37,563 nt of DNA from an uncultured Erysipelotrichaceae bacterium (GTDB taxonomy: Bacteria > Bacillota_I > Bacilli_A > RF39 > UBA660). Every line of letters begins with the position of its first letter. The stretch's first letter is position 1. The notes under the pieces are model-generated. The model was not told the DNA's origin. It did no database searches and worked only from the letters and a program-made list of their open reading frames with translations. The translations under genes were made by a program, and so were the position numbers. Shown piece after piece: positions 134-35,430 of this stretch. The stretch spans positions 1-37,563 of the forward strand of contig CAOJUX010000011.1 of the NCBI GenBank assembly GCA_948444795.1. The letters run 5' to 3'.

Positions 134-688
134 CTAATTTGTTCTTTTCCACATATAGCAAGTAATATAAGGTGGTAAATTATTATGTGCTTGATCTCCT
201 CCTGTATTTCTACTGTTTTGGTTAAATGAAGGGTTTCCAGTACCAGTTATACAAGGTGTCCAAGCACCACTACCACTAACACTAGCAACTGTATTTTCAA
301 TATCATGTAAATGAGAATGACTAGGCATTTCATTCACAGTTAATTTATGAGTTTTTTCTCCCCCTATTTTATTTGGAGTATTAAATTCAGTTTGATCTTC
401 ATCTAAGCCAAATAAACAACGACCTTTTATTCTTTCCCAACTCCCACCAAAATAATTAGTAGGATTTGTTCCATTTGTACTTATATAAATAGATCCTACT
501 GGATATAACATATTAATAATAGGCTGAATAGCATTAATTGATTGAACATTTATATTGCCTAAATTATCAATTGAAAAATTATTATTTTTTGATGTAATAC
601 ATTCAACTGTTAGTTTATTTATATCCAAATTTACCTTTCCATTTTCTTTTGTAAAATTATCTTTAAAATACAATTCATTTAAATTCAT
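134..688 (-). CDS. Phage tail/baseplate protein, gp10 C-terminal-like
   Basis: A 184-residue protein whose C-terminal two thirds match the domain found at the end of T4 gp10-type baseplate proteins and many Firmicute phage tail proteins. Visible hallmarks are YPVGSIYIS, FGGSWERIKGRCLFG, the GGEKTHKLTVNEMPSHSH segment and the terminal NNLPPYITCYMWKR. The first 60 residues are a variable linker that probably attaches to the rest of the particle. The SD AAGGAGGAGAAAGAA before ATG is strong. The likely role is a structural part of a tail fibre or baseplate. It lies downstream of a phage-type regulator and just upstream of a partial surface or tail gene, so this edge is probably a prophage or prophage remnant. 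Confidence 0.8.
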   Translation of the reverse strand: MNLNELYFKDNFTKENGKVNLDINKLTVECITSKNNNFSIDNLGNINVQSINAIQPIINMLYPVGSIYISTNGTNPTNYFGGSWERIKGRCLFGLDEDQTEFNTPNKIGGEKTHKLTVNEMPSHSHLHDIENTVASVSGSGAWTPCITGTGNPSFNQNSRNTGGDQAHNNLPPYITCYMWKRTN

Positions 689-17814: not shown

Positions 17815-18294
17815 CTAATTATTATCAATAAAATCACTAACTACTTTTACAAAATCATTATTGTTACTTTTATATTTTTTAGGTTTAAACTTCTTTATAT
17901 CTTTTATAGCACTACCTAAGTTATCTAAGTTTTGAACATGTTTTATGTAACCCATCTTATCAAATTCTTCTGCTATTTGCAGTTGATGATCATTATTATG
18001 TTCATGAAACGCTCTTTTTCTTGCCACAGCTATAACTTTTTTATTATTTAAAAGACCTGTCATAATAGAACCTACTCCAGCATGAGTTATAAGTAGATTA
18101 CATTTTTTAACATATTCATTAAACTCTGCAAGAGGAATCATCTTTTTTATTATCATATTTTTGGATTCATATGTAGAATATCCTGATTGTACTATTACTT
18201 CTTCTTTTATTGTACCTGCTACTATTTCTTTGTCTATCGCTTTTATAAGTCTATTAAATTGTTTATCTTGTGTTCCAAGTGTTACAAATATCAT
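17815..18294 (-). CDS. PssE/Alg13-like glycosyltransferase catalytic subunit
   Basis: A 159-residue single-domain GT28 C-terminal protein. It opens MIFVTLGTQDKQFNRLIKAI and carries the donor-binding segment LLITHAGVGSIMTGLLNNKK, then HEHNNDHQLQIAE. In capsule clusters this half works with a membrane partner of the PssD/Alg14 type, and that partner is the gene directly upstream (18304-18774). Together they form one two-subunit glycosyltransferase, often a galactosyl or glucuronosyl enzyme. The sugar here is unknown. SD GGAGG lies before ATG 18294. Confidence 0.85.
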   Translation of the reverse strand: MIFVTLGTQDKQFNRLIKAIDKEIVAGTIKEEVIVQSGYSTYESKNMIIKKMIPLAEFNEYVKKCNLLITHAGVGSIMTGLLNNKKVIAVARKRAFHEHNNDHQLQIAEEFDKMGYIKHVQNLDNLGSAIKDIKKFKPKKYKSNNNDFVKVVSDFIDNN

Positions 18295-18303
18295 AAAAAC
18301 CTC

Positions 18304-18774
18304 CTAAAAAATAAATCCAGCATAAACAGCTTTAGGATATAACTTTTTCATAGATTCCCACTGTACTATAAATAAATCAGCAACCAAATAAAGTAACTTT
18401 CCCGTAATAGTTTTAGTATTTACATTAGCCATAGTTTCAATATAAATAACTTTTCTTCTAAATATTTTGGCTAAAAGACAAATAGGACCAGCAGTATGAG
18501 TACCAGTTGTTACTACATATTTTGGATTAAATTTAATAAAATAATAAAGACTTATAAAACAATTAATAAATAGTTTAAAAGGATATGTTAGAGGATGATC
18601 TTTTGTTCCAAATAACATAAATCCCATTTTTTTACCCCATTTTTCTTTTAGTTTTAAGTTAGCATAAGTCTTTTCTGTTATTAAATAACTATTGTATTTA
18701 GAAAATAATTTTTCTAGCATTAATAGTTCTTTTAAATGACCTCCAGTTGATGATATAAATAATACCTTTTTCAT
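18304..18774 (-). CDS. PssD/Alg14-like glycosyltransferase membrane subunit
   Basis: A 156-residue protein of the Alg14 family, starting MKKVLFISSTGGHLKELLML (the SSTGGHL motif). It has a hydrophobic stretch (LFINCFISLYYFIKFNPKYV) that would anchor it at the membrane, and the TTGTHTAGPICLLAKI segment seen in PssD and CpsF. It recruits the soluble catalytic subunit, whose gene follows 9 bases later. Start and the upstream glycosyltransferase stop are directly adjacent. Confidence 0.85.
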   Translation of the reverse strand: MKKVLFISSTGGHLKELLMLEKLFSKYNSYLITEKTYANLKLKEKWGKKMGFMLFGTKDHPLTYPFKLFINCFISLYYFIKFNPKYVVTTGTHTAGPICLLAKIFRRKVIYIETMANVNTKTITGKLLYLVADLFIVQWESMKKLYPKAVYAGFIF

Positions 18775-19710
18775 TTAGCACCTCTTTAGTTTTTGATATA
18801 TATTACAATATATTTTAATTAAATTTTTATTTTTTTCAATTATAGTTTTATATATATTTCTTTCTTTTATATAAATACTATTTTTAAAATCAATATTATT
18901 ATTAACAAAATATTCAAATACTTGGTCAATAAATTTATTTCTTATATTTTTATCTTTTTGATATCTTTGTTGAATTGCATAATTTAATAAAATAGACGTA
19001 ATTAAATCATCAATATATTCATTATCATTTAATATTCTTTTTAAATAATCCATATGCTTAAATATATCAAAAACTTTTTCATCTCTAGTAGTTGTTTCAC
19101 TCATTTTATGAACTCTAAAATAATTTAAAACACTATTTTCTTTACTAATAATTTCACTTCTCATCATACATTCTGCAACAAAAGAAACATCTTCATATTT
19201 TAAATTAGTAAAATTAATATTATTATCAACAAGCATTTTTCGTCTAAATAATTTATTACATGGCCCAAGTGGAATATCATAAATAAGTTTTGGATTCTGT
19301 TTTAAATTTGTTGTAGAAAAGCAAGGCAATAAAACATCTTTTTCTGTATTATTTGCATAAATATACTTATAGTCACATATTACTAAATCACTATTGTTGG
19401 TTTTAGCGTTTTCATACATTTTTGAAAGGAAATCTTTAGAGATGTAATCATCTGGGTCAATAAAAGCAACATACTCTCCCTTAGCAGCTTTAAGCCCATC
19501 ATTTCTAGTAATGCCAATATATTTGTTTTTTTTGTGTTTGATTATTTTAATATTTTTGTATTTTTCTAGTATTTTTAAAGAATTATCAGTAGATGCATCA
19601 TCTATAGCAATTATTTCATAGCCAATAAAATCATTAGATAGAATACTATTTAGGCATTTTTCTATATATTTTTCTTGATTATACACAGGAATTATAATAC
19701 TAATTTTCAT
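18775..19710 (-). CDS. GT2-family glycosyltransferase
   Basis: A 311-residue GT-A enzyme. The nucleotide-binding start is ISIIIPVYNQEKYIEKCLNS, followed by IAIDDASTDNS. The DxD-type motif is FIDPDDYIS, and the acceptor segment includes GPCNKLFRRKML and NLKYEDVSFVAE. The C-terminal 110 residues are basic and helical with no transmembrane helix. It adds one sugar to the growing repeat unit. Its closest neighbour in the window is the next GT2 gene upstream, with the same layout, suggesting an old duplication. Confidence 0.88.
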   Translation of the reverse strand: MKISIIIPVYNQEKYIEKCLNSILSNDFIGYEIIAIDDASTDNSLKILEKYKNIKIIKHKKNKYIGITRNDGLKAAKGEYVAFIDPDDYISKDFLSKMYENAKTNNSDLVICDYKYIYANNTEKDVLLPCFSTTNLKQNPKLIYDIPLGPCNKLFRRKMLVDNNINFTNLKYEDVSFVAECMMRSEIISKENSVLNYFRVHKMSETTTRDEKVFDIFKHMDYLKRILNDNEYIDDLITSILLNYAIQQRYQKDKNIRNKFIDQVFEYFVNNNIDFKNSIYIKERNIYKTIIEKNKNLIKIYCNIYQKLKRC

Positions 19711-19713
19711 TTC

Positions 19714-20595
19714 TTAACCTCCAAATTTAGCTTTATATTTTGTTTTATTTAATTTTCTTTTAAGGGTATCACTATTCAGATAATCAAATACTTTTAATTC
19801 AATTATTTTATTTTTATATTTTTCTTTATTATCTAAATTAAAATATTTAAGAAGAATGCTTGTAGCATAGAAATGACTTAGTTCTTTTTTGTTTTTTATT
19901 TCATCTTGGACATTTTCAAATATATATAAAGCATCTTTCATTTTTTGTTCTTCTTTAGTTTTATCGGTCATAATACTATTTTCTCTTATAACATAATTAT
20001 AGCCAATAAAACTTAAAGACTTTACTTTGCTGGCATTATAAATAATTCTAGGTATTAAGTGAAAATCTTCATGATATATTCCTTTTAAAAATTTATAGTT
20101 ATTTTTTTGAAGATATGAGTTTTTTATGGCATATAGCTGAGCCATTTCAATGTATTTATATCTTACAATTTTAGTAAAAGCATCATTGCCACTACACGTA
20201 TTAAAGCCATCTTCCAAAATATCATTATTTTTATCATTATTTATTTCGCGTATTTGAAATCTTACTACATCTTCATCTTTAGTGAATGTATTTAGGGTAG
20301 CTAATAGTTCTTTGTCAATATAATCATCACTATCTAAAAAAAGAATATAGTCTCCAGTAGCTGTTTTTATTCCATTATTTCTTGCTACACTTAAACCCAT
20401 ATTTTTTTGTTTAATATATTTTATATTATCATATTTTTTTAAATATTTATTTATCAAATTTTCACTATTATCTTCTGTTCCATCATTAATTATAATAACT
20501 TCATAATTTTTATAAGAACTTGTAAATACACTATCTAAACATTTTTCTAAATACTTTTCTGTATTATAAACTGGTATTATTATGCTAAATTTCAT
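19714..20595 (-). CDS. GT2-family glycosyltransferase
   Basis: About 293 residues. GT-A fold with FSIIIPVYNTEKYLEKCLDS, IIINDGTEDNS and the DxD motif FLDSDDYID; YHEDFHLIPR marks the catalytic-loop region. ORF extension to 20607 is possible with a GTG, but GGTGAT plus six bases favours ATG 20595, which still overlaps the upstream GT4 gene by 11 bases. It is one of two tandem GT2 enzymes that probably build the same oligosaccharide unit. Confidence 0.88.
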   Translation of the reverse strand: MKFSIIIPVYNTEKYLEKCLDSVFTSSYKNYEVIIINDGTEDNSENLINKYLKKYDNIKYIKQKNMGLSVARNNGIKTATGDYILFLDSDDYIDKELLATLNTFTKDEDVVRFQIREINNDKNNDILEDGFNTCSGNDAFTKIVRYKYIEMAQLYAIKNSYLQKNNYKFLKGIYHEDFHLIPRIIYNASKVKSLSFIGYNYVIRENSIMTDKTKEEQKMKDALYIFENVQDEIKNKKELSHFYATSILLKYFNLDNKEKYKNKIIELKVFDYLNSDTLKRKLNKTKYKAKFGG

Positions 20596-21688
20596 TTTTA
20601 TCACCACTTAGTAATTTATCTATTTTTTCTCTTCTTTCTTGATTTATATAAGCAAAATCATACTTATTTTCTATCTTTTTATTATTTTTAATAATTTTTT
20701 CTATTTCTTTTTGCATTTTTTGAATATTTTTGTCTACAATAAAACAAGCAGAATTTAAATCAATATAATCATCACTAACACTAATCGTAGAAATAACTTG
20801 TTTTTTAAGTACTAAAGCTTCTAAAATAGTTACAGGGAAACCTTCATGATCGCTAGTTAAAATAACATAATCTGCCATTTTCATATAGGGATACGGATTA
20901 TTTTTGACACCTACTAAAGTTACATCATCTACTAAATTTTTCTCTTTAATTAATTTTTGATATAACGCTAAGTCTTTTCCTCCTCCAACTATTATAAGTT
21001 TTACTTTATATTTTTTATTCTTCAAATATTCTATTACTTCAATTATCTTTGATATTTTTTTAACTGTTTCATCAAGCCTTCCTACATAAGTAAAATATAT
21101 ATATCCATTTTCTTTTTTTAATGAAATTTTTTCTTTTGAAGATAATATTATTTTTTTATATTCTATAAAATTATTTATAACTACTGATTTATTTTTTATC
21201 TCTGGAATAACTTTAATTAAATTATTTTTAGATTCATTAGATACAAAAACAACTTTTTGAAAATCATTTATTTCCTGTTTATTAAAAAGTTCTAGGACGC
21301 CTTCTTTAGAAAGTTCTTCTGTATAATCCCCATGAATATAAATTATTCTATTATCACTACGTAATCTTGCATATAAACTACAAGGATAAGAATATGTCGC
21401 ATAACAGATTGAGATATCATACTTTTTAGAATTTAACAAATAAAATCTACAACGATTAAATAAATTTTTTAATTTTCTTAAAAAAGCAATTTTAAAAGTA
21501 CTTATATTATAATTGAAAACATGAACATTTTTATTTATATTTTTTTTCAAAGGTCCCTCAAATTTTTCTAAAAACAAAGTGACATCATACTTATCATAAT
21601 TAATATTATTTAAAAACTCTATTAAAGATTTCTCAATACCACCCATACACAAAGTACAAGATAAAATCATTACTTTTTTCTTTTTCAT
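20585..21688 (-). CDS. GT4-family glycosyltransferase
   Basis: A 367-residue GT-B enzyme. The N-terminus is MILSCTLCMGGIEKSLIEFL. The donor domain has FTYVGRLDETVKKISKIIEV and the motif LTSDHEGFPVTILEALVLKK (E-x7-E). The N-terminal half has the look of a cytosolic, membrane-associated enzyme. It overlaps the acetyltransferase stop by 4 bases (ATGA type), showing tight coupling in the cluster. Confidence 0.88.
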   Translation of the reverse strand: MKKKKVMILSCTLCMGGIEKSLIEFLNNINYDKYDVTLFLEKFEGPLKKNINKNVHVFNYNISTFKIAFLRKLKNLFNRCRFYLLNSKKYDISICYATYSYPCSLYARLRSDNRIIYIHGDYTEELSKEGVLELFNKQEINDFQKVVFVSNESKNNLIKVIPEIKNKSVVINNFIEYKKIILSSKEKISLKKENGYIYFTYVGRLDETVKKISKIIEVIEYLKNKKYKVKLIIVGGGKDLALYQKLIKEKNLVDDVTLVGVKNNPYPYMKMADYVILTSDHEGFPVTILEALVLKKQVISTISVSDDYIDLNSACFIVDKNIQKMQKEIEKIIKNNKKIENKYDFAYINQERREKIDKLLSGDKNEI

Positions 21689-22239
21689 AATTTAATTCCT
21701 CTTGCATTTTCAAATTGTTCCCATAATTTGTTTTCAGTTTCTAAATCTATATATTCTATTACATCATCATTATTTTTTTGCCTTTTTTCAATATATCTTT
21801 CAAATGTAGAAATTACTTTGGCAGGGTTTCCTGCTACTACCGAGTTATCAGGAATATCTTTTGTAATAACACTTCCTGCTCCAATAATAACATTATTTCC
21901 AATTCTAATATTTGGAAGTATTATACTATCACATCCGATAAAAACATTATTCATAACTTCTATTGGACCAGAATAATATTTATAATTATAAGAAGATATA
22001 TTATTAAGCATAAAATCAGCTATATCATGAGTTATAAATGTTACTCCACTTGTTACTACAACATTATTATGAAATTTAATTAATTTTGGATCCGCTGGAA
22101 TAATACGTGGTTGAAAAAAAAAGTTTTCTCCTACACTTTTAAAAATATTATGTTTTATTAAATACTTAGTTCTCTTTTTGGCGTCAATTATAAGTGCTAT
22201 TCTTATTTTTTTTAATTGGTCTTTTTTATATCTTCTCAT
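21685..22239 (-). CDS. Left-handed beta-helix acetyltransferase
   Basis: A 184-residue hexapeptide-repeat protein. Repeats of [LIV]-G-x4 are visible in EVMNNVFIGCDSIILPNIRI, then GNNVIIGAGSVITKDIPDNS and VVAGNPAKVI, the last a hallmark of the CysE/LacA/NodL acetyltransferase group. An active-site-like H is seen in FITHDIADFM. It probably O-acetylates a sugar of the polysaccharide using acetyl-CoA. SD GGAGGAATAAACT precedes ATG 22239, four bases after the Wzy-like gene stop. Confidence 0.86.
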   Translation of the reverse strand: MRRYKKDQLKKIRIALIIDAKKRTKYLIKHNIFKSVGENFFFQPRIIPADPKLIKFHNNVVVTSGVTFITHDIADFMLNNISSYNYKYYSGPIEVMNNVFIGCDSIILPNIRIGNNVIIGAGSVITKDIPDNSVVAGNPAKVISTFERYIEKRQKNNDDVIEYIDLETENKLWEQFENARGIKL

Positions 22240-22242
22240 AGT

Positions 22243-23511
22243 TTATTCCTCCATAATTTTATTTGTTAAAACTAGTATAATTATAACATAAATTGCTACA
22301 GCTGGGGTAGATAATACATGCCCAGTTAAACAGGCACAAAGAATTGAAATAATAACCGCTATAAAACAAGATGATTTTATTAAATTATTAAAATTGTTTT
22401 TGAAATTTTTAAAGTAATTTCTAAATATTTTATATAATATTTTAAAATACAAAAAATAAATTATTATAAAACCAATTATTCCTTGACTTATAATCATATC
22501 TAAATAATCCATTTCAACAATTTTCAAATAGCTATTATTAATAGTATAACCAATACCAAATAATTTTTGATAAATATTTGCATTTTGATAAATTTCTAAA
22601 TTATTTTCAAAAAAAGTTAATCGATCACTAAAAATAAAACGATCTAAACATTTAAACGAAAAGAAGTCTTTAAAAGAGTGTATTTCTAAAAAATTTAAAT
22701 GAATTATAATATTTTGATAAAAAGGTGTTTTAGGAATAAGAATAATAAATGCTATTATAAATACTGATAATAAACCAATTAAAATAATAAATAATATATA
22801 TTTTCGTGTTTTTATTAAATAATAAAATAAATAAATCAAGTAATAAATAAATATTAAACTAGCACATAATAATGGTGCTTTTGTTCCAATATTTAAAAGA
22901 CAATAAACATACACTATTAAAAGAATTAAAAGTCTTACTCTATTTTTACACTTCTGCATATATGCTATAGCACCCCCAATTAAAAGGCTAATTATACTAC
23001 CTACAGCATTAGCTGAATAAAAAAAACCAATAGCTCCTGTTTTAGCATAAGAATAACTATTAAAACCTATATTTAATAAATTAGGAACAAAAATTAAAAT
23101 TAAATATATTTCTAAAATAATACTGATTTTTTTTAAAGAAATTTTTTTATAATTAAATATTCTAATAGTAAATAATAAAATTATAGGAAAATATAAAATA
23201 TTTAAAAGCATTTTTGATTCAAAAAGAAACATATTCATGCCCTTAAAAATATATATACCACTCAAAAAGAAAATGGAATAAAATAATAATACTATTAGAT
23301 ATTTTTTATTCCTTTCTTGATTAATAAACCATAAATAATATACTCCAAATAGCAAAAATAACATTCTAATATAAGCCGAAATTGATAAATCTAAATTAAA
23401 TTTATTTAATAAAATGCCAGTTGTTAAATCAAGGATTGGTTGTAAGAACAAATATATCATATAAATTACAATAATATTACTTTCTATTTTTTGATTTACT
23501 TTTTTTAGCAT
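22243..23511 (-). CDS. Wzy-like polysaccharide polymerase (O-antigen ligase family)
   Basis: A 422-residue polytopic membrane protein with about ten to twelve hydrophobic helices and one large external loop (about 265-315, FYQNIIIHLNFLEIHSFKDF onward). It contains the AKTGAIGFFYSANAVGSIIS segment typical of this broad family. In this setting it most likely polymerises lipid-linked repeat units on the outer face of the membrane. Sequence in this class is poorly conserved, so the call rests on topology and context. It is the first gene of the cluster after mraY. SD ATAGGTGAT lies before ATG 23511. Confidence 0.75.
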   Translation of the reverse strand: MLKKVNQKIESNIIVIYMIYLFLQPILDLTTGILLNKFNLDLSISAYIRMLFLLFGVYYLWFINQERNKKYLIVLLFYSIFFLSGIYIFKGMNMFLFESKMLLNILYFPIILLFTIRIFNYKKISLKKISIILEIYLILIFVPNLLNIGFNSYSYAKTGAIGFFYSANAVGSIISLLIGGAIAYMQKCKNRVRLLILLIVYVYCLLNIGTKAPLLCASLIFIYYLIYLFYYLIKTRKYILFIILIGLLSVFIIAFIILIPKTPFYQNIIIHLNFLEIHSFKDFFSFKCLDRFIFSDRLTFFENNLEIYQNANIYQKLFGIGYTINNSYLKIVEMDYLDMIISQGIIGFIIIYFLYFKILYKIFRNYFKNFKNNFNNLIKSSCFIAVIISILCACLTGHVLSTPAVAIYVIIILVLTNKIMEE

Positions 23512-26601: not shown

Positions 26602-26628
26602 AAAAAAGAAGAGTTTTTCTCTTCTTAA
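26602..26628 (-). terminator. Terminator of the bacteriocin operon
   Basis: On the minus strand, AAGAAGAG, AAAAA, CTCTTCTT forms an 8-bp stem followed by six T's. It lies a few bases past the stop of the second peptide gene and closes the operon. Confidence 0.85.
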
Positions 26629-26632
26629 TTTA

Positions 26633-26788
26633 CTAGCAATAATTTCTAGTCCAAATTCTTCTAATAGCAGTTCCAACTGTGCGTCCAAAATCCATTATTG
26701 CATTTGCAGCACGTGCCACAGCATTAATCCAAGTTGCTGTTGTTGCACCACCAGTTACTAACATCAATTCTTTTGATTCTAATTTCAT
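26633..26788 (-). CDS. Double-glycine-leader bacteriocin-like peptide B (51 aa)
   Basis: The predicted leader is MKLESKELMLVTGG (14 residues, with the hydrophobic spacing and GG end that C39 peptidases recognise). It is followed by a cationic 37-residue core that starts ATTATWINAVARAANAIMDF, continues GRTVGTAIRRIW and ends TRNYC. GRTVG is a GxxxG helix-packing motif; the core would be an amphipathic helix. The SD TAAGGAGG six bases before ATG 26788 is the strongest in the region. The gene starts 11 bases after peptide A and a terminator follows. The stop position could be off by a couple of bases, so the last few residues (NYC) deserve checking. Confidence 0.78.
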   Translation of the reverse strand: MKLESKELMLVTGGATTATWINAVARAANAIMDFGRTVGTAIRRIWTRNYC

Positions 26789-26799
26789 CTTAAACCTCC

Positions 26800-26931
26800 T
26801 TATCTACATTTATATGGTCTTACAATACCATCTACTACTCCGGCAATAAATAAAGCTATTCCACCAATTATGGCAAAAACTTTATATCCTCCACCTTCTA
26901 TAGTTTTTAATTCATAGTCATTTAATATCAT
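26800..26931 (-). CDS. Double-glycine-leader bacteriocin-like peptide A (43 aa)
   Basis: The leader MILNDYELKTIEGG resembles known bacteriocin leaders (LxxxELxxIxGG). The core of 29 residues starts GYKVFAIIGGIALFIAGVVD and ends GIVRPYKCR. It is a strongly hydrophobic helix with a GxxxG motif (GVVDG) and a basic C-terminus carrying one Cys. The SD AAAGGAG lies inside the end of the upstream accessory gene, whose TGA is 5 bases before this ATG, so translation is coupled. With peptide B it has the features of a class IIb two-peptide bacteriocin: two adjacent genes, GG leaders, GxxxG in both, and a shared C39 exporter. A signalling peptide is an alternative. Confidence 0.8.
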   Translation of the reverse strand: MILNDYELKTIEGGGYKVFAIIGGIALFIAGVVDGIVRPYKCR

Positions 26932-26935
26932 TCTA

Positions 26936-27358
26936 TCACTTCTCCTTTACTTTTTTAATGACTAATTTTAATAAACTTATTTTTTCGTTTATTAAATCTA
27001 ATTTTACTATTTCATTATTTTTTAAATCATAATCATTGGGTATTATTGATATTTTTTGAAAATAATTATTATCATTATCAGTTTCTAACTCTCCATAAAA
27101 TATATCCTTAATTAAATATTCTTTGTCATTTATTTTTATTTTATTAATATTATAAGGACTATCATAACTTTGATAAAAATTTAAAGTACATAATTCTTCA
27201 TTACAAGAAGTTAATGCTTTGATTTTGACCTTATCTTCTAAAGAATAGAGAAGGCTTGTAAGTATTGCAAAAATAGTTATTGTAAATAAAATAATTAAAT
27301 AAGGTCTTTTCTTAACTATCATATAATTATATTTATTATATATTAAATCATTTATCAT
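26936..27358 (-). CDS. Short bacteriocin-export accessory protein (mini-HlyD-like)
   Basis: A 140-residue protein. The N-terminus is cytosolic and basic, then a transmembrane helix (about 20-41, YLIILFTITIFAILTSLLYS), then a 95-residue external beta-rich domain with a CxxxxC pair (SCNEELC). The position matches that of HlyD/LcnD-type accessory proteins, but the protein is about a third of their length and has no coiled coil. It looks like the membrane anchor plus membrane-proximal barrel only. It overlaps the exporter stop by 4 bases (ATGA). It could instead be an immunity protein, since none other is visible in the operon. Confidence 0.6.
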   Translation of the reverse strand: MINDLIYNKYNYMIVKKRPYLIILFTITIFAILTSLLYSLEDKVKIKALTSCNEELCTLNFYQSYDSPYNINKIKINDKEYLIKDIFYGELETDNDNNYFQKISIIPNDYDLKNNEIVKLDLINEKISLLKLVIKKVKEK

Positions 27359-29394
27359 AAGCTCTCAAAATCTATTATTTCATCAAATATATTATCATAA
27401 TTTTTATGACTAACATATATAATAGTTTTATCTTTAAATTTTTTACGGAGTTTATCCAAGATATTTTGCTCTAAATCTTTATTTACTTCACTTAATGCTT
27501 CATCTAAAATAAGAATCTCAAAATAACTTAAAAGAGCACGGGCAAGAATAATTCGTTGCTTTTCACCACCAGATATATTCGTTGCATCTTTTAATATTTC
27601 AGTTTCAAATCTTAATGCTTTTCGAGAAACTATATCTTCAATATGACAAATATCAACAATCTCTTTAAAATCTTCTTCTTTAATTTTTCTATTTAGAATA
27701 ATATTATTTCTAATAGTATCTTGAAGTAAAGATTCTTTTTGACCTATATACATAATATTTTGACGGTATGTTTTTAAACTATAATCGTTTATGCTACTTT
27801 CTCCTATATATATATTATTATTTTTATTTTCTATTAAACGACTTAGTATTTGACAAATTGTTGATTTACCACACCCACTTCTTCCTTTAAATAATATAAA
27901 GCTATTCTTTTTAATTTTTAAACTAAAATTATCAAATAACATATTATAATTATCATAAGAGTAGGATAAATTATTAATTATAATATCATCATTTTTAAAG
28001 TCTTTTATCCCAATAGAATCATCTTCTAAAGTAACATTATAAAATTCATTTAACTTATTTAAAGAGATTTTAAAATAATTATAACTTGGTATTATATTAA
28101 TAAGAGTTTTAAAAGGCATCGTAAAATAACCTACTAAACTTTCAATTATTATAAAATCTGTTATATTTAAGCTTTGTTTTGATATATAAAATATCGCTAT
28201 AGTTACAAGAGAAAAATTTAATAATTCTTCTATAATATAACTAAAATTAGTACTTTTTAAGACTCTTCTATCGAATATATTTAATTTAGTCAAATATTTA
28301 AATAAACATGTATTTACTTTTCTTTTAACTAAATTCATAATATTAAGATTTTTAAAAGATGTATAAGTATCAATAGTTTCAATAATATTGGTATTAAAAG
28401 ATATTTCCGCTTCATTACTATCAATTGCCTTATAATATATTTTTTTCCCTTCATATATTCCATATAAAAGATAAATTACAACAAATAATATAATGATTAA
28501 AAAAATATTCAAATTAATTTTACATATTATTATTCCTGCTGATAGAGCAGTAATTCCATCTACACTTAGTGCTATTAAAAATTCAGATATAATCATTTTC
28601 AAATTTCCTACTTCAGATATTCTAGTCATAATCTCTCCCGTTGTCCTATTTTTAATGAAATAGTTTGGAAGTGAAAATAAGTGTTCTATAAAATCAGAAT
28701 AAATAATACCATCAATATGTTTATTTAAAGTTAATTTATAATAATTTCTTATAATATAAATAAAGAATTTAATTACCATTAAGTTAAAGAAAAAAATGCA
28801 AATTATTTTACTCGATAAATCATAAGATACATTTAAAATAACTTTAAAGTAAAAACTAGTAATAATTGTAAATAAAGAAAATAAAATTGTTAAAAATATA
28901 ATTTCTAAAATTAATTTCTTTTTTTCATGTAATACTCTAAATAATAAACCTTTTAAATAATTTTTATTATTTTCAATAATTATTTTGTTTTTAGGATAAA
29001 GAATTATCAAATTTTTACTCCATACATTTTCAAATTCTTTAAGGGGCATTACTACCCTTCCTTTTGCTGGATCCATAATAGTTATCTTATTATTCGATAT
29101 TTTATAGATAACAACAAAATGATTTAAATTATCTAAAACAACATGAGCAATAGCTGGCATAATGATATTTTCTAAATCACATATATTATCACATTTTATT
29201 CCATATGCATCAAAACCATAACTTTTACTAGCATTTATTATATTTAAAGCATTTGTTCCTTCCATATTAGTTAATGTATCAACTCTCAATTTTTCCATCG
29301 AAACATAACCATTATAATATTTTATAACTGATAATAAAGAACAAACTCCACAATCTTTAAAATCTTGTTGGATTACTACACATTTTGATTTCAT
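27355..29394 (-). CDS. C39 peptidase-containing bacteriocin ABC exporter
   Basis: About 679 residues. Residues 1-135 are a C39 leader peptidase with Gln9, Cys15 (QQDFKDCGVCSLL), His92 (NHFVVIYKI) and Asp108 (MDPAKGR). Residues 150-435 are an exporter transmembrane domain. The C-terminal nucleotide-binding domain has GRSGCGKST (about 504-512), ISGGEKQ signature, ILILDEA Walker B and a YVSH switch His. It cuts double-glycine leaders while exporting the peptide. Its likely substrates are the two peptides just downstream. GTG 29400 is in frame, but AGGAGG plus five bases selects ATG 29394. Confidence 0.93.
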   Translation of the reverse strand: MKSKCVVIQQDFKDCGVCSLLSVIKYYNGYVSMEKLRVDTLTNMEGTNALNIINASKSYGFDAYGIKCDNICDLENIIMPAIAHVVLDNLNHFVVIYKISNNKITIMDPAKGRVVMPLKEFENVWSKNLIILYPKNKIIIENNKNYLKGLLFRVLHEKKKLILEIIFLTILFSLFTIITSFYFKVILNVSYDLSSKIICIFFFNLMVIKFFIYIIRNYYKLTLNKHIDGIIYSDFIEHLFSLPNYFIKNRTTGEIMTRISEVGNLKMIISEFLIALSVDGITALSAGIIICKINLNIFLIIILFVVIYLLYGIYEGKKIYYKAIDSNEAEISFNTNIIETIDTYTSFKNLNIMNLVKRKVNTCLFKYLTKLNIFDRRVLKSTNFSYIIEELLNFSLVTIAIFYISKQSLNITDFIIIESLVGYFTMPFKTLINIIPSYNYFKISLNKLNEFYNVTLEDDSIGIKDFKNDDIIINNLSYSYDNYNMLFDNFSLKIKKNSFILFKGRSGCGKSTICQILSRLIENKNNNIYIGESSINDYSLKTYRQNIMYIGQKESLLQDTIRNNIILNRKIKEEDFKEIVDICHIEDIVSRKALRFETEILKDATNISGGEKQRIILARALLSYFEILILDEALSEVNKDLEQNILDKLRKKFKDKTIIYVSHKNYDNIFDEIIDFESL

Positions 29395-29467
29395 TTTCAC
29401 CTCCTATTACACATATACACCCCAAATTCGTATTTTCCTTCTTTTTTTATTAATTTTTTTTAATTAA

Positions 29468-29623: not shown

Positions 29624-30571
29624 TTAAATATTATACTTATTAATTATTTCTTTATATTTTAAGAACTCACTATTATTCTTATCAATTTGTAACACATATA
29701 ATACTTTCCCATATAATTTCTTCAAATATTTTTCAGGGGCAATGTTTATATTACATTTCTTTAAATGAGAATGTAAGCCAAATTTATTTATATAGTATAT
29801 TTCTTTTCTAATTTCCTTGCGATATTTTGAACATACTTGTGCTTTTTCATTAACTACAATTCCTGTAACTATCTGACTCGAATTTTGATTTACTACATGA
29901 ATTTTACTACTATTTAGTTCTAGCCCAAATTTATAAAGTAGTTTTCTAACTTTAATTATAATTTCACTAGGGTTAAAATCTCCAGAAAAAGTCATATCAT
30001 CAGAATATCTGGTATAAGTTATCATATTTAAATCACACCATCCCCCTATTTCATTATCAAAATCTTTCATAATAAGATTTGAAATATATGCTGATGTTGG
30101 AGCCCCTTGAGGCAAATGTTCATCATAAGTACATAAATAAGTTAATAGCATTCCAACAGATTTAGGAAAATATTCTATTGAAAAACAGCAATTATAAATA
30201 TCCATAAAAGATATATTTCCAAAAAAATTTTTAACATCAAGTTTTAAGATTACTTTTTTATTTACATGCAAAAGAGCATTATCTTTTAATGAAATTCCTT
30301 TATGATACGCTTTTGCATATTTGGATATAGATTTATTATTAAGTATATTAGTTAAAATTTTTCTTTGAATTTTTTTTAATAATGGACTTGGTTCATATAT
30401 AGTTCTACATTTACCATTAGTTTTTCTGATTTTATATAATTTATAATTTGATTCTATATTATTAGTTATTGAGTAAAGAGTTTTTATATACCATTTTTCT
30501 TCTTTATAATCAAATAGATTAAGAGATAGCAAAAATTCATTACATTCTTTAGTTCCTATGTATTTCCACAT
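29624..30571 (-). CDS. Retron reverse transcriptase
   Basis: A 315-residue RT. Retron-specific motifs are intact: NALLH at 98-102 (NAXXH, region X) and VTG at 235-237 (region Y). RT motifs are LKLDVKNFF (109-117, first catalytic Asp112), PQGAPTS (154-160) and YSDD (189-192). The protein has no fused toxin or protease domain. It would use the RNA at 30594-30756 as primer and template to make multicopy single-stranded DNA. ATG 30571 with GGAGG seven bases upstream is the start; a longer reading to 30658 runs through the RNA. No clear effector gene is adjacent. Confidence 0.92.
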   Translation of the reverse strand: MWKYIGTKECNEFLLSLNLFDYKEEKWYIKTLYSITNNIESNYKLYKIRKTNGKCRTIYEPSPLLKKIQRKILTNILNNKSISKYAKAYHKGISLKDNALLHVNKKVILKLDVKNFFGNISFMDIYNCCFSIEYFPKSVGMLLTYLCTYDEHLPQGAPTSAYISNLIMKDFDNEIGGWCDLNMITYTRYSDDMTFSGDFNPSEIIIKVRKLLYKFGLELNSSKIHVVNQNSSQIVTGIVVNEKAQVCSKYRKEIRKEIYYINKFGLHSHLKKCNINIAPEKYLKKLYGKVLYVLQIDKNNSEFLKYKEIINKYNI

Positions 30572-30593
30572 TTTACTACCTCCAATTAAATCT

Positions 30594-30756
30594 GCAGTAC
30601 TAATGATATTGTAATATGGAAATGGGCATAAGCAAAGTGCAACGAAGCGTCTACACAAAGTGTAGTTTAGCCCTTTGAAATATTACCATTTAATTATCAT
30701 AATAATTATAGTCCCTTAGCGACTCGCTAAAGTAGGAAAAATCCAATCACTACTGC
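30594..30756 (-). ncRNA. Retron msr-msd RNA (predicted)
   Basis: The minus-strand RNA directly upstream of the RT gene folds like a retron template. a1 (30756-30742, GCAGTAGTGAT) pairs with a2 (30611-30594, ATCAT, 3-base bulge, TACTGC). Then comes TTAGCGAG, the same string that surrounds the branch G of retron Ec86. Two short msr hairpins lie at 30716-30730 and 30692-30707. A long msd hairpin runs from 30686 to 30611, with base GTAATAT/ATATTAC, middle GGGC-TAA/TTA-GCCC and tip CTACAC-TTT-GTGTAG. The msd abuts a2, as expected. The fold was read by eye, and exact cDNA ends are unknown. Confidence 0.8.
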
Positions 30757-34815: not shown

Positions 34816-35430
34816 CTAATTTTTAATTCTTTTTCTTATCATTAAAAAATCAAAATTGTCTCTATAAATATCTTTTACAATTTGCTCATAAGAAAATGTT
34901 ACATCAATTTGTACATCACCCTCATACCAAGAATTTGATATATAAAATTCGTTTTTATCTTTATTCAAACTAGTTATTACAATATAATGTCCTTCTTCAG
35001 CAAATATATTTGGATGTGGTCCTACTCCAATTATTGCCATATATCCTTCTTTAATCATTTTTATTACAGTTTGCTTCATTAATTCTGGATGGTTATAGTT
35101 AATTTTAATTATTTTATATTCTATATCCATTTTTTCTTCTATTAATTTATTTAAACAATATATTATCGACACTCCATTAATTCCTTCAAAATATCCTTCT
35201 GAAAGAAATCCATATTCATTAAATAGCATTTTTTTCGAAATAGAAATAGGATCTTCATCATATCCTAAACTTGCCAAAATAGTAGCTAATGAGGTTGGTC
35301 CACAACCATTCTTTTTTATTATCCAATTAGTATCTTCTAATGGTTCTGTATATTCATATTGTTTAAATCTTTTAGTTAAACGCCTTCCATATTTATTTGG
35401 ACCTATCAAATCATATTTTCTGTCACTCAT
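34816..35430 (-). CDS. C39-like papain-fold cysteine peptidase, cytosolic
   Basis: A 204-residue protein with a C39_2-type papain-like domain: Cys43 in NGCGPTSLATIL, His148 in EEGHYIVITSL and Asn166 in FYISNSWYEG give a plausible Cys-His-Asn triad. There is no signal peptide or membrane helix, so it acts inside the cell or is released some other way. Substrate unknown. It could be a protease, an acyl or peptide hydrolase, or a toxin-type effector. SD TGAGGTAATTACT precedes ATG 35430. A terminator at 35462-35500 lies upstream, so it starts its own unit. Confidence 0.75.
   Translation of the reverse strand: MSDRKYDLIGPNKYGRRLTKRFKQYEYTEPLEDTNWIIKKNGCGPTSLATILASLGYDEDPISISKKMLFNEYGFLSEGYFEGINGVSIIYCLNKLIEEKMDIEYKIIKINYNHPELMKQTVIKMIKEGYMAIIGVGPHPNIFAEEGHYIVITSLNKDKNEFYISNSWYEGDVQIDVTFSYEQIVKDIYRDNFDFLMIRKRIKN

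What the first reader, a model, noticed from the sequence alone, without database searches (positions are those of the whole stretch)
26633..26931. Unannotated two-peptide (class IIb-like) bacteriocin pair
Two tiny adjacent genes (43 and 51 aa) sit in a gap downstream of a C39 exporter. Both have 14-residue leaders ending in GG and strong SDs. Both cores carry GxxxG (GVVDG and GRTVG), the helix-packing motif of class IIb pairs. The core sequences match no bacteriocin I can recall. They end the operon at a terminator.
Basis: partly seen in the sequence, partly recalled or inferred. Interest (0 to 1): 0.88.

Follow-up and report, generated by a model that had tools for sequence, protein, structure and literature searches.

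The report
Conserved secreted two-peptide pair, cysteine-coupled
The two tiny genes are real and belong to a peptide-export cassette found in about nine of ten genomes of a large family of uncultured gut bacteria; they probably make a membrane-active peptide duo, perhaps joined by a disulfide, but no killing activity has been shown.

Summary
Two adjacent double-glycine precursors, A (43 aa) and B (51 aa), follow a C39 exporter and end at a terminator. What looked like a local find is a core cassette of the host's bacterial family (about 1 Mb gut Bacilli/'Tenericutes' MAGs): at least 347 of 386 genomes and 142 of 150 genera carry B, and no full-length match was found in about 700 genomes outside the family. 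The exporter tree keeps 36 of 37 genera monophyletic, so inheritance is vertical; the cores evolve no faster than the exporter. GxxxG is nearly invariant in both cores. Each core has one C-terminal cysteine: 172 of 176 pairs have both, 3 lack both, 1 (contig edge) is discordant. One genome carries two tandem pairs, one with both cysteines and one with neither. This suggests a disulfide-linked A-B heterodimer. The third gene (M) is a reduced membrane-fusion-protein-like accessory. About a third of loci, not this window, add a membrane peptide homologous to B overlapping B's stop, a candidate immunity mimic. It works like a class IIb two-peptide system. Membership is unproven: killing was not tested and no immunity gene is recognisable here. 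Antagonism is most likely; an envelope or signalling role is not excluded.

The parts
27355..29400 (-). C39 peptidase-containing ABC exporter (681 aa), the only C39-ABC exporter found in this assembly
   Evidence: Pfam Peptidase_C39 112 bits, ABC_membrane, ABC_tran; the other ABC hits in G000 start after residue 129 of the query and so lack C39; orthologue in 19 of 22 genus genomes, own included
26936..27358 (-). gene M, 140 aa: short N-terminus, one TM helix, beta-barrel domain, C-terminal helix; reduced membrane-fusion-protein-like accessory
   Evidence: AlphaFold2 pLDDT 90; structural matches led by MFPs: BesA Z 8.6, Spr0693 7.8, then AcrA/MacA about 7; no Pfam/NCBIfam hit
26942..26947 (-). 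Shine-Dalgarno-like AAGGAG before A
   Evidence: sequence
26800..26931 (-). peptide A precursor, 43 aa; leader 26890-26931, core 26803-26889 with GVVDG, RP and C-terminal Cys
   Evidence: TIGR03949 25.9 bits over cut-off 21.5
26795..26801 (-). Shine-Dalgarno-like AAGGAGG before B, overlapping A's stop codon
   Evidence: sequence
26633..26788 (-). peptide B precursor, 51 aa; leader 26747-26788, core 26636-26746 with GRTVG, IRR and C-terminal NYC
26606..26626 (-). intrinsic-terminator-like hairpin ending the operon

Best explanation
The window holds one copy of an ancestral, family-wide two-peptide secretion cassette. Steps: (1) A and B are made together, with B's SD overlapping A's stop. (2) The C39 exporter, helped in most lineages by the reduced accessory protein M, cuts each leader after GG and exports both cores. 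(3) Outside, the A helix (GxxDG) and the B helix (GRxxG) pack through their GxxxG faces, and the single C-terminal cysteine of each locks them into an A-S-S-B heterodimer. (4) The dimer inserts into membranes and permeabilises neighbouring cells, giving the auxotrophic producer a competitive or nutrient gain. (5) In about a third of the loci (not this one) a membrane peptide derived from B protects the producer by imitating B and capturing A. Basis: the gene content, leaders, GxxxG conservation, coupled cysteines, M fold and B-like membrane peptide are shown by sequence or model. Cleavage and export follow from the known C39 family. Disulfide pairing is inferred from co-occurrence. Membrane attack, nutrient gain and immunity by mimicry are hypotheses.
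For: Cassette order conserved across the genus. B in 342/386 family genomes and 142/150 genera, 5 more found on re-search of missing ones. Genomes lacking B lack a C39 exporter of this kind. Across 176 pairs: GxxxG glycines 169 and 175 (A), 175 and 176 (B); Cys 173 (A) and 172 (B) in the aligned column. Cysteines are present or absent together: 172 both, 3 neither, 1 discordant at a contig edge. G066 carries a Cys+/Cys+ pair and a Cys-/Cys- pair in tandem in one operon. The B-like membrane ORF overlapping B's stop occurs in 57 of 174 loci when defined by position alone, all with GxxxG, against 23 of 3640 random positions; it aligns to B over 34 columns including the Cys (HHalign E 4e-8 to 6e-8; reversed-B control 0.018; against A 0.39). 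M has an MFP-like fold. Precedents: gallocin A, whose immunity peptide GIP is modelled as a mimic of the bacteriocin peptides (PMC10100652), and CbnZ, a 42-aa single-TM immunity protein directly downstream of its pair (PMC6957408).
Against: No activity, export or disulfide has been measured. Near-universal vertical inheritance and core divergence no higher than the exporter's are unusual for a bacteriocin under an arms race. 41 of 169 loci have neither M nor the B-like membrane peptide, so no universal immunity candidate was found. No DsbB or VKOR homologue in 59 of 59 family genomes, so the enzyme that would make the disulfide is unknown. The cysteine-less pairs may reflect only one or two evolutionary events. 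The D(A)-R(B) charge pairing is not significantly coupled (Fisher p 0.09).
Confidence: 0.5

Rival explanations
1. A and B are not weapons but a core component of the producer's own envelope: after export they insert into the producer's own membrane or surface as a covalent heterodimer with a structural or transport role.
For: Near-universal, vertically inherited, often placed next to bS21-YqeY core genes (58 of 86 genera), cores under purifying selection, no universal immunity gene, retained in genomes of about 1 Mb.
Against: The whole cassette is lost in some near-complete genomes, so it is not essential. A double-glycine leader and C39 exporter normally release the peptide. The B-like membrane peptide fits immunity better than structure.
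Confidence: 0.22
2. An ordinary class IIb bacteriocin system in which M is the immunity protein, and lineages without M use an unlinked immunity gene.
For: M is co-transcribed, has a TM segment and sits beside the pair in 117 of 169 loci; class IIb immunity proteins vary widely in length and number of TM segments (PMC6957408).
Against: M's fold is that of a membrane-fusion-protein barrel, which fits export. M is absent in 52 loci that keep A and B, and a better immunity candidate (the B-like membrane peptide) exists.
Confidence: 0.12
3. A and B are secreted signalling peptides (pheromone or quorum type) sensed by relatives.
For: GG-leader peptides exported by C39 transporters include pheromones; some A and B members match the ComC or BlpC leader models weakly.
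Against: Two unlike peptides with GxxxG and coupled cysteines are unusual for pheromones. No histidine kinase or response regulator was seen beside the operon in this window.
Confidence: 0.1
4. The peptides are remnants, translated but without function.
For: A few loci have a damaged copy (L221 A-B fusion, L015 altered B end at a contig edge).
Against: Near-invariant motifs across 87 genera and matching cysteine states.
Confidence: 0.02

Closest known systems
Class IIb two-peptide bacteriocins (lactococcin G, plantaricin EF/JK, carnobacteriocin XY; leader families TIGR03949, PF10439)
   Same: Two adjacent genes, GG leaders, C39 exporter plus accessory protein, GxxxG in both cores, operon ends after the peptides.
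   Different: Core sequences match no family; one C-terminal Cys in each core, whereas most class IIb peptides have none (PMC10100652); no immunity gene recognised in the window; family-wide vertical inheritance instead of patchy distribution.
Gallocin A / brochocin C / thermophilin 13 / ABP-118 subgroup
   Same: Cysteines important in a two-peptide system (shown for gallocin A); a third gene whose product resembles the peptides (GIP) and is proposed to compete with them (PMC10100652).
   Different: Those peptides have two cysteines each and intramolecular bonds (shown for gallocin A, predicted for most of the others); here one each, so only an intermolecular bond is possible. The immunity-like peptide here is homologous to B in sequence, not only in a model.
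Cdz glycine-zipper contact-dependent killing system of Caulobacter
   Same: Two small GxxxG-containing proteins exported by a type I system, with a small membrane immunity protein (PMC5380434).
   Different: CdzC/D are 84-86 aa with extended glycine zippers, in a Gram-negative with outer-membrane localisation; a sequence relation was not tested.
Membrane fusion proteins (BesA, Spr0693, AcrA, MacA)
   Same: Beta-barrel domain of M matches them best.
   Different: M keeps only a TM helix and the barrel; hairpin and lipoyl domains are missing in a 140-aa protein.

Membership tests
Class IIb two-peptide bacteriocin | Two different small precursors encoded side by side in one operon | tested here: met
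Class IIb two-peptide bacteriocin | Double-glycine leaders and a C39 ABC exporter (with accessory protein) | tested here: met
   accessory M is reduced but MFP-like
Class IIb two-peptide bacteriocin | GxxxG or GxxxG-like motif in both cores | tested here: met
   A 169 and 175 of 176, B 175 and 176 of 176 at the two glycines
Class IIb two-peptide bacteriocin | Dedicated immunity protein in the cluster | tested here: inconclusive
   none recognised in the window; a B-like membrane peptide in about a third of related loci; 41 of 169 loci have neither it nor M
Class IIb two-peptide bacteriocin | Both peptides needed in about equal amounts to kill | not testable with these tools
   needs synthetic or expressed peptides
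TIGR03949 (lactobin A/cerein 7B family) | Precursor score over curated cut-off 21.5 bits | tested here: inconclusive
   A 25.9 bits, B no hit; A core without leader gives no hit, so the match is largely leader-driven
Gallocin-like disulfide subgroup of class IIb | Two cysteines per peptide forming an intramolecular bond | tested here: not met
   one Cys per core in 163 A and 162 B of 176 pairs examined; the window's cores have one each
Membrane fusion protein (for M) | MFP barrel fold next to an ABC exporter | tested here: met
   BesA Z 8.6, rmsd 2.5, 83 residues; most of the top 10 VIA rows are MFPs or MFP-containing pumps; Foldseek gave no significant hit
Membrane fusion protein (for M) | Coiled-coil hairpin and lipoyl domains | tested here: not met
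   absent from the 140-residue model
Quorum-sensing pheromone | Cognate histidine kinase and response regulator near the gene | tested here: inconclusive
   none among the window ORFs read or profiled; an unlinked receptor was not searched for

The most novel reading that the evidence does not exclude
Nearly every member of a large family of genome-reduced, fatty-acid-auxotrophic gut bacteria exports a covalently linked (A-S-S-B) two-peptide membrane agent as a core lifestyle trait, using it to open neighbouring cells for lipids and other nutrients, with self-protection by a membrane-anchored duplicate of one of the two peptides.
Probability: 0.15. Interest if true: 0.88.

Novelty: new variant of a known kind. 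Interest (0 to 1): 0.66.

Why it matters
Two-peptide systems are usually found as scattered accessory traits, mostly in lactic acid bacteria. Here one is a near-universal, vertically inherited trait of a family of uncultured gut bacteria with genomes of about 1 Mb, so it points to a core part of how they live, about which little is known. The single-cysteine pairing is a design not found in the class IIb papers read here; PMC10059821 says disulfide formation from single cysteines has never been reported in bacteriocins. It is easy to test with synthetic peptides. The membrane peptide homologous to B gives sequence evidence for immunity by mimicry, a mechanism so far proposed from models for gallocin A.

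Tried and rejected
Viral contigs: no relative of the exporter. Phage records: no match to B. Plasmid records: only distant C39 exporters under 30% identity among the best rows, so no sign of a mobile origin. Charge pairing between the Asp of A's GxxDG and the Arg of B's GRxxG: not significant. M as carrier of a conserved cysteine pair for disulfide exchange: rejected, 45 of 117 M proteins have no cysteine. Disulfide-forming enzymes DsbB and VKOR: none in the family sample. Structure prediction of the natural A-B fusion L221: dropped, because the alignment placed A rows on B's leader. Foldseek against PDB gave no significant match for M (E >= 0.04, MHC-like rows at rmsd 6-13 Angstrom ignored). 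Marginal B-profile hits outside the family (G405, G786, G798) cover only the leader and the first residues, in ORFs of 118-139 aa, and were not counted as relatives. Rfam over the whole window: nothing.

Full report
OBSERVATION. Both ORFs exist as described: A (26800-26931, minus, 43 aa) and B (26633-26788, minus, 51 aa), each with a 14-residue leader ending in GG, an SD-like sequence and a GxxxG in the core; a terminator-like hairpin follows at 26626-26606. B's SD overlaps A's stop codon. Upstream lie a 140-aa gene (called M here) and a C39 peptidase ABC exporter with all three domains. In the same assembly the other ABC hits start after residue 129 of the query, so this is the only C39-ABC exporter found.

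CONSERVATION IN THE GENUS. The exporter has an orthologue at 44-54% identity in 18 of 21 other genomes of the genus. Beside it the same two peptides recur, in the same order, with M between exporter and A in all but one (L027) of the loci.

CONSERVATION IN THE FAMILY. A profile of B finds it in 342 of 386 genomes sampled evenly over the family, 142 of 150 genera, and 233 of 251 genomes that are at least 90% complete. Re-searching 19 of the missing ones (plus three genomes of the genus) with a wider profile found 5 more. Genomes lacking B (G006, G009, G020, G173, G177, G087, G101, G121, G146) show no C39-bearing hit of this exporter type, so peptides and exporter are lost together. Samples of the class and phylum gave hits in nearly all sampled genomes of the family (51 of 54 listed, and 19 of 19 listed), and outside it only three partial, leader-only matches. 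I extracted 182 loci. In the exporter tree 36 of 37 genera with two or more loci are monophyletic, and core identity keeps pace with or exceeds exporter identity over most of the range. In 94 of 176 loci (58 of 86 genera) a nearby downstream gene is a bS21-like protein, in several followed by a YqeY-like one (identified by eye and by a small profile). This is a vertically inherited core locus, moved in the window's own genus.

CYSTEINES. Nearly every core has exactly one cysteine, near its C-terminus. Of 176 complete pairs, 172 have it in both, 3 in neither (L116, L180, L186) and 1 in A only (L015, where B ends 36 nt from the contig end). The script's raw table differs because it looked only at the last 8 residues: it counted an internal Cys of A in L180/L186 as terminal and missed the Cys 10 residues from the end of A in L252. 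The exceptions fall in genera g44 and g46, where other members keep both. In g46, genome G066 carries exporter-M-A1-B1-A2-B2, with cysteine in A1 and B1 and no C-terminal cysteine in A2 and B2. The two residues thus travel as a pair. The simplest reading is an A-B disulfide; this is inference, since no bond was measured. Against it, no DsbB or VKOR homologue is found in 59 of 59 genomes. Most class IIb peptides lack cysteine; gallocin A has two per peptide and intramolecular bonds (PMC10100652).

A FIFTH GENE ELSEWHERE. In 57 of 174 loci an ATG ORF of 40 aa or more starts within -30 to +10 nt of B's stop, mostly 7 or 13 nt before it. All 57 contain GxxxG in their C-terminal part; only 23 of 3640 random positions give an ORF of that size with GxxxG. 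These products have a basic N-terminus, a hydrophobic helix and a B-like tail, and align to the B core over 34 columns (HHalign E 4e-8; 6e-8 for the set chosen by position only; reversed-B control 0.018; against A 0.39). I propose immunity by mimicry, as suggested from models for gallocin's GIP (PMC10100652); the position and size also fit known small immunity proteins such as CbnZ (PMC6957408). The window's genus lacks this gene, and 41 of 169 loci lack both it and M.

GENE M. The model (pLDDT 90) is a TM helix plus a beta-barrel domain. The best structural matches are membrane fusion proteins (BesA Z 8.6, Spr0693 7.8, then AcrA and MacA about 7). Foldseek alone gave nothing significant, and Z near 8 is moderate, so the assignment rests on fold, on the cluster of MFP rows and on position beside an ABC exporter. 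M is present in 117 of 169 loci and so is helpful but dispensable.

FAMILY NAMES. Precursor A passes TIGR03949 (25.9 against 21.5 bits) and B does not. Without leaders neither core matches any NCBIfam model apart from one chance-level hit. The cores are therefore unclassified.

HOST. Record titles say uncultured Tenericutes or Bacilli MAGs, some with sample labels that point to rabbit or mouse. fabF is missing in 74 of 77 family genomes, which fits the reported loss of fatty-acid synthesis in order RF39 (PMC6784871). The papers on RF39/UBA660 that I searched do not describe bacteriocins of these organisms.

MECHANISM AND VERDICT. The anatomy fits a co-exported, helix-pairing, membrane-active peptide duo that works like a class IIb system. 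Antagonism towards neighbours is the most likely role because of the leader-exporter type, the GxxxG pair and the B-like membrane peptide. Near-universality, vertical inheritance and the lack of a universal immunity gene leave an envelope or signalling role open. Filing it as a class IIb bacteriocin is not warranted until killing by both peptides is shown. I rate it a new variant of a known kind.

Noticed in passing
window 29624-30658 (-): Reverse transcriptase of retron type (NCBIfam retron St85 RT 215 bits, cut-off 235) directly upstream of the exporter; no Rfam retron RNA found over the window.
   Followed up: partly
L270 (G066), downstream of the exporter: Two tandem A-B pairs in one operon, one pair with both C-terminal cysteines and one with neither.
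   Followed up: yes
L221:3416-3688 (+): A and B fused in one open frame after loss of A's tail and stop; natural fusion or assembly error.
   Followed up: partly
L083, L085, L137 (genus g98): A third GG-leader peptide without GxxxG (for example MQRMENEELMSYSGGGLFTTIANLVISIISLTKAIFSLKNLRG) lies between M and A.
   Followed up: no
G405, G786, G798 (other family of the class): ORFs of 118-139 aa match only the leader and first residues of B: possibly other GG-leader exported proteins in small-genome relatives.
   Followed up: no
window 134-688 (-): Phage baseplate Gp10 C-terminal domain protein at the window edge.
   Followed up: no
window 34816-35430 (-): Peptidase_C39_2-like protein unlinked to the cassette.
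   Followed up: no
window 17815-23511 (-): Run of glycosyltransferase-like, acetyltransferase-like and O-antigen-ligase-like genes (by eye) beside MraY-like and SpoVD-type PBP genes, suggesting a surface polysaccharide locus next to the cassette.
   Followed up: no
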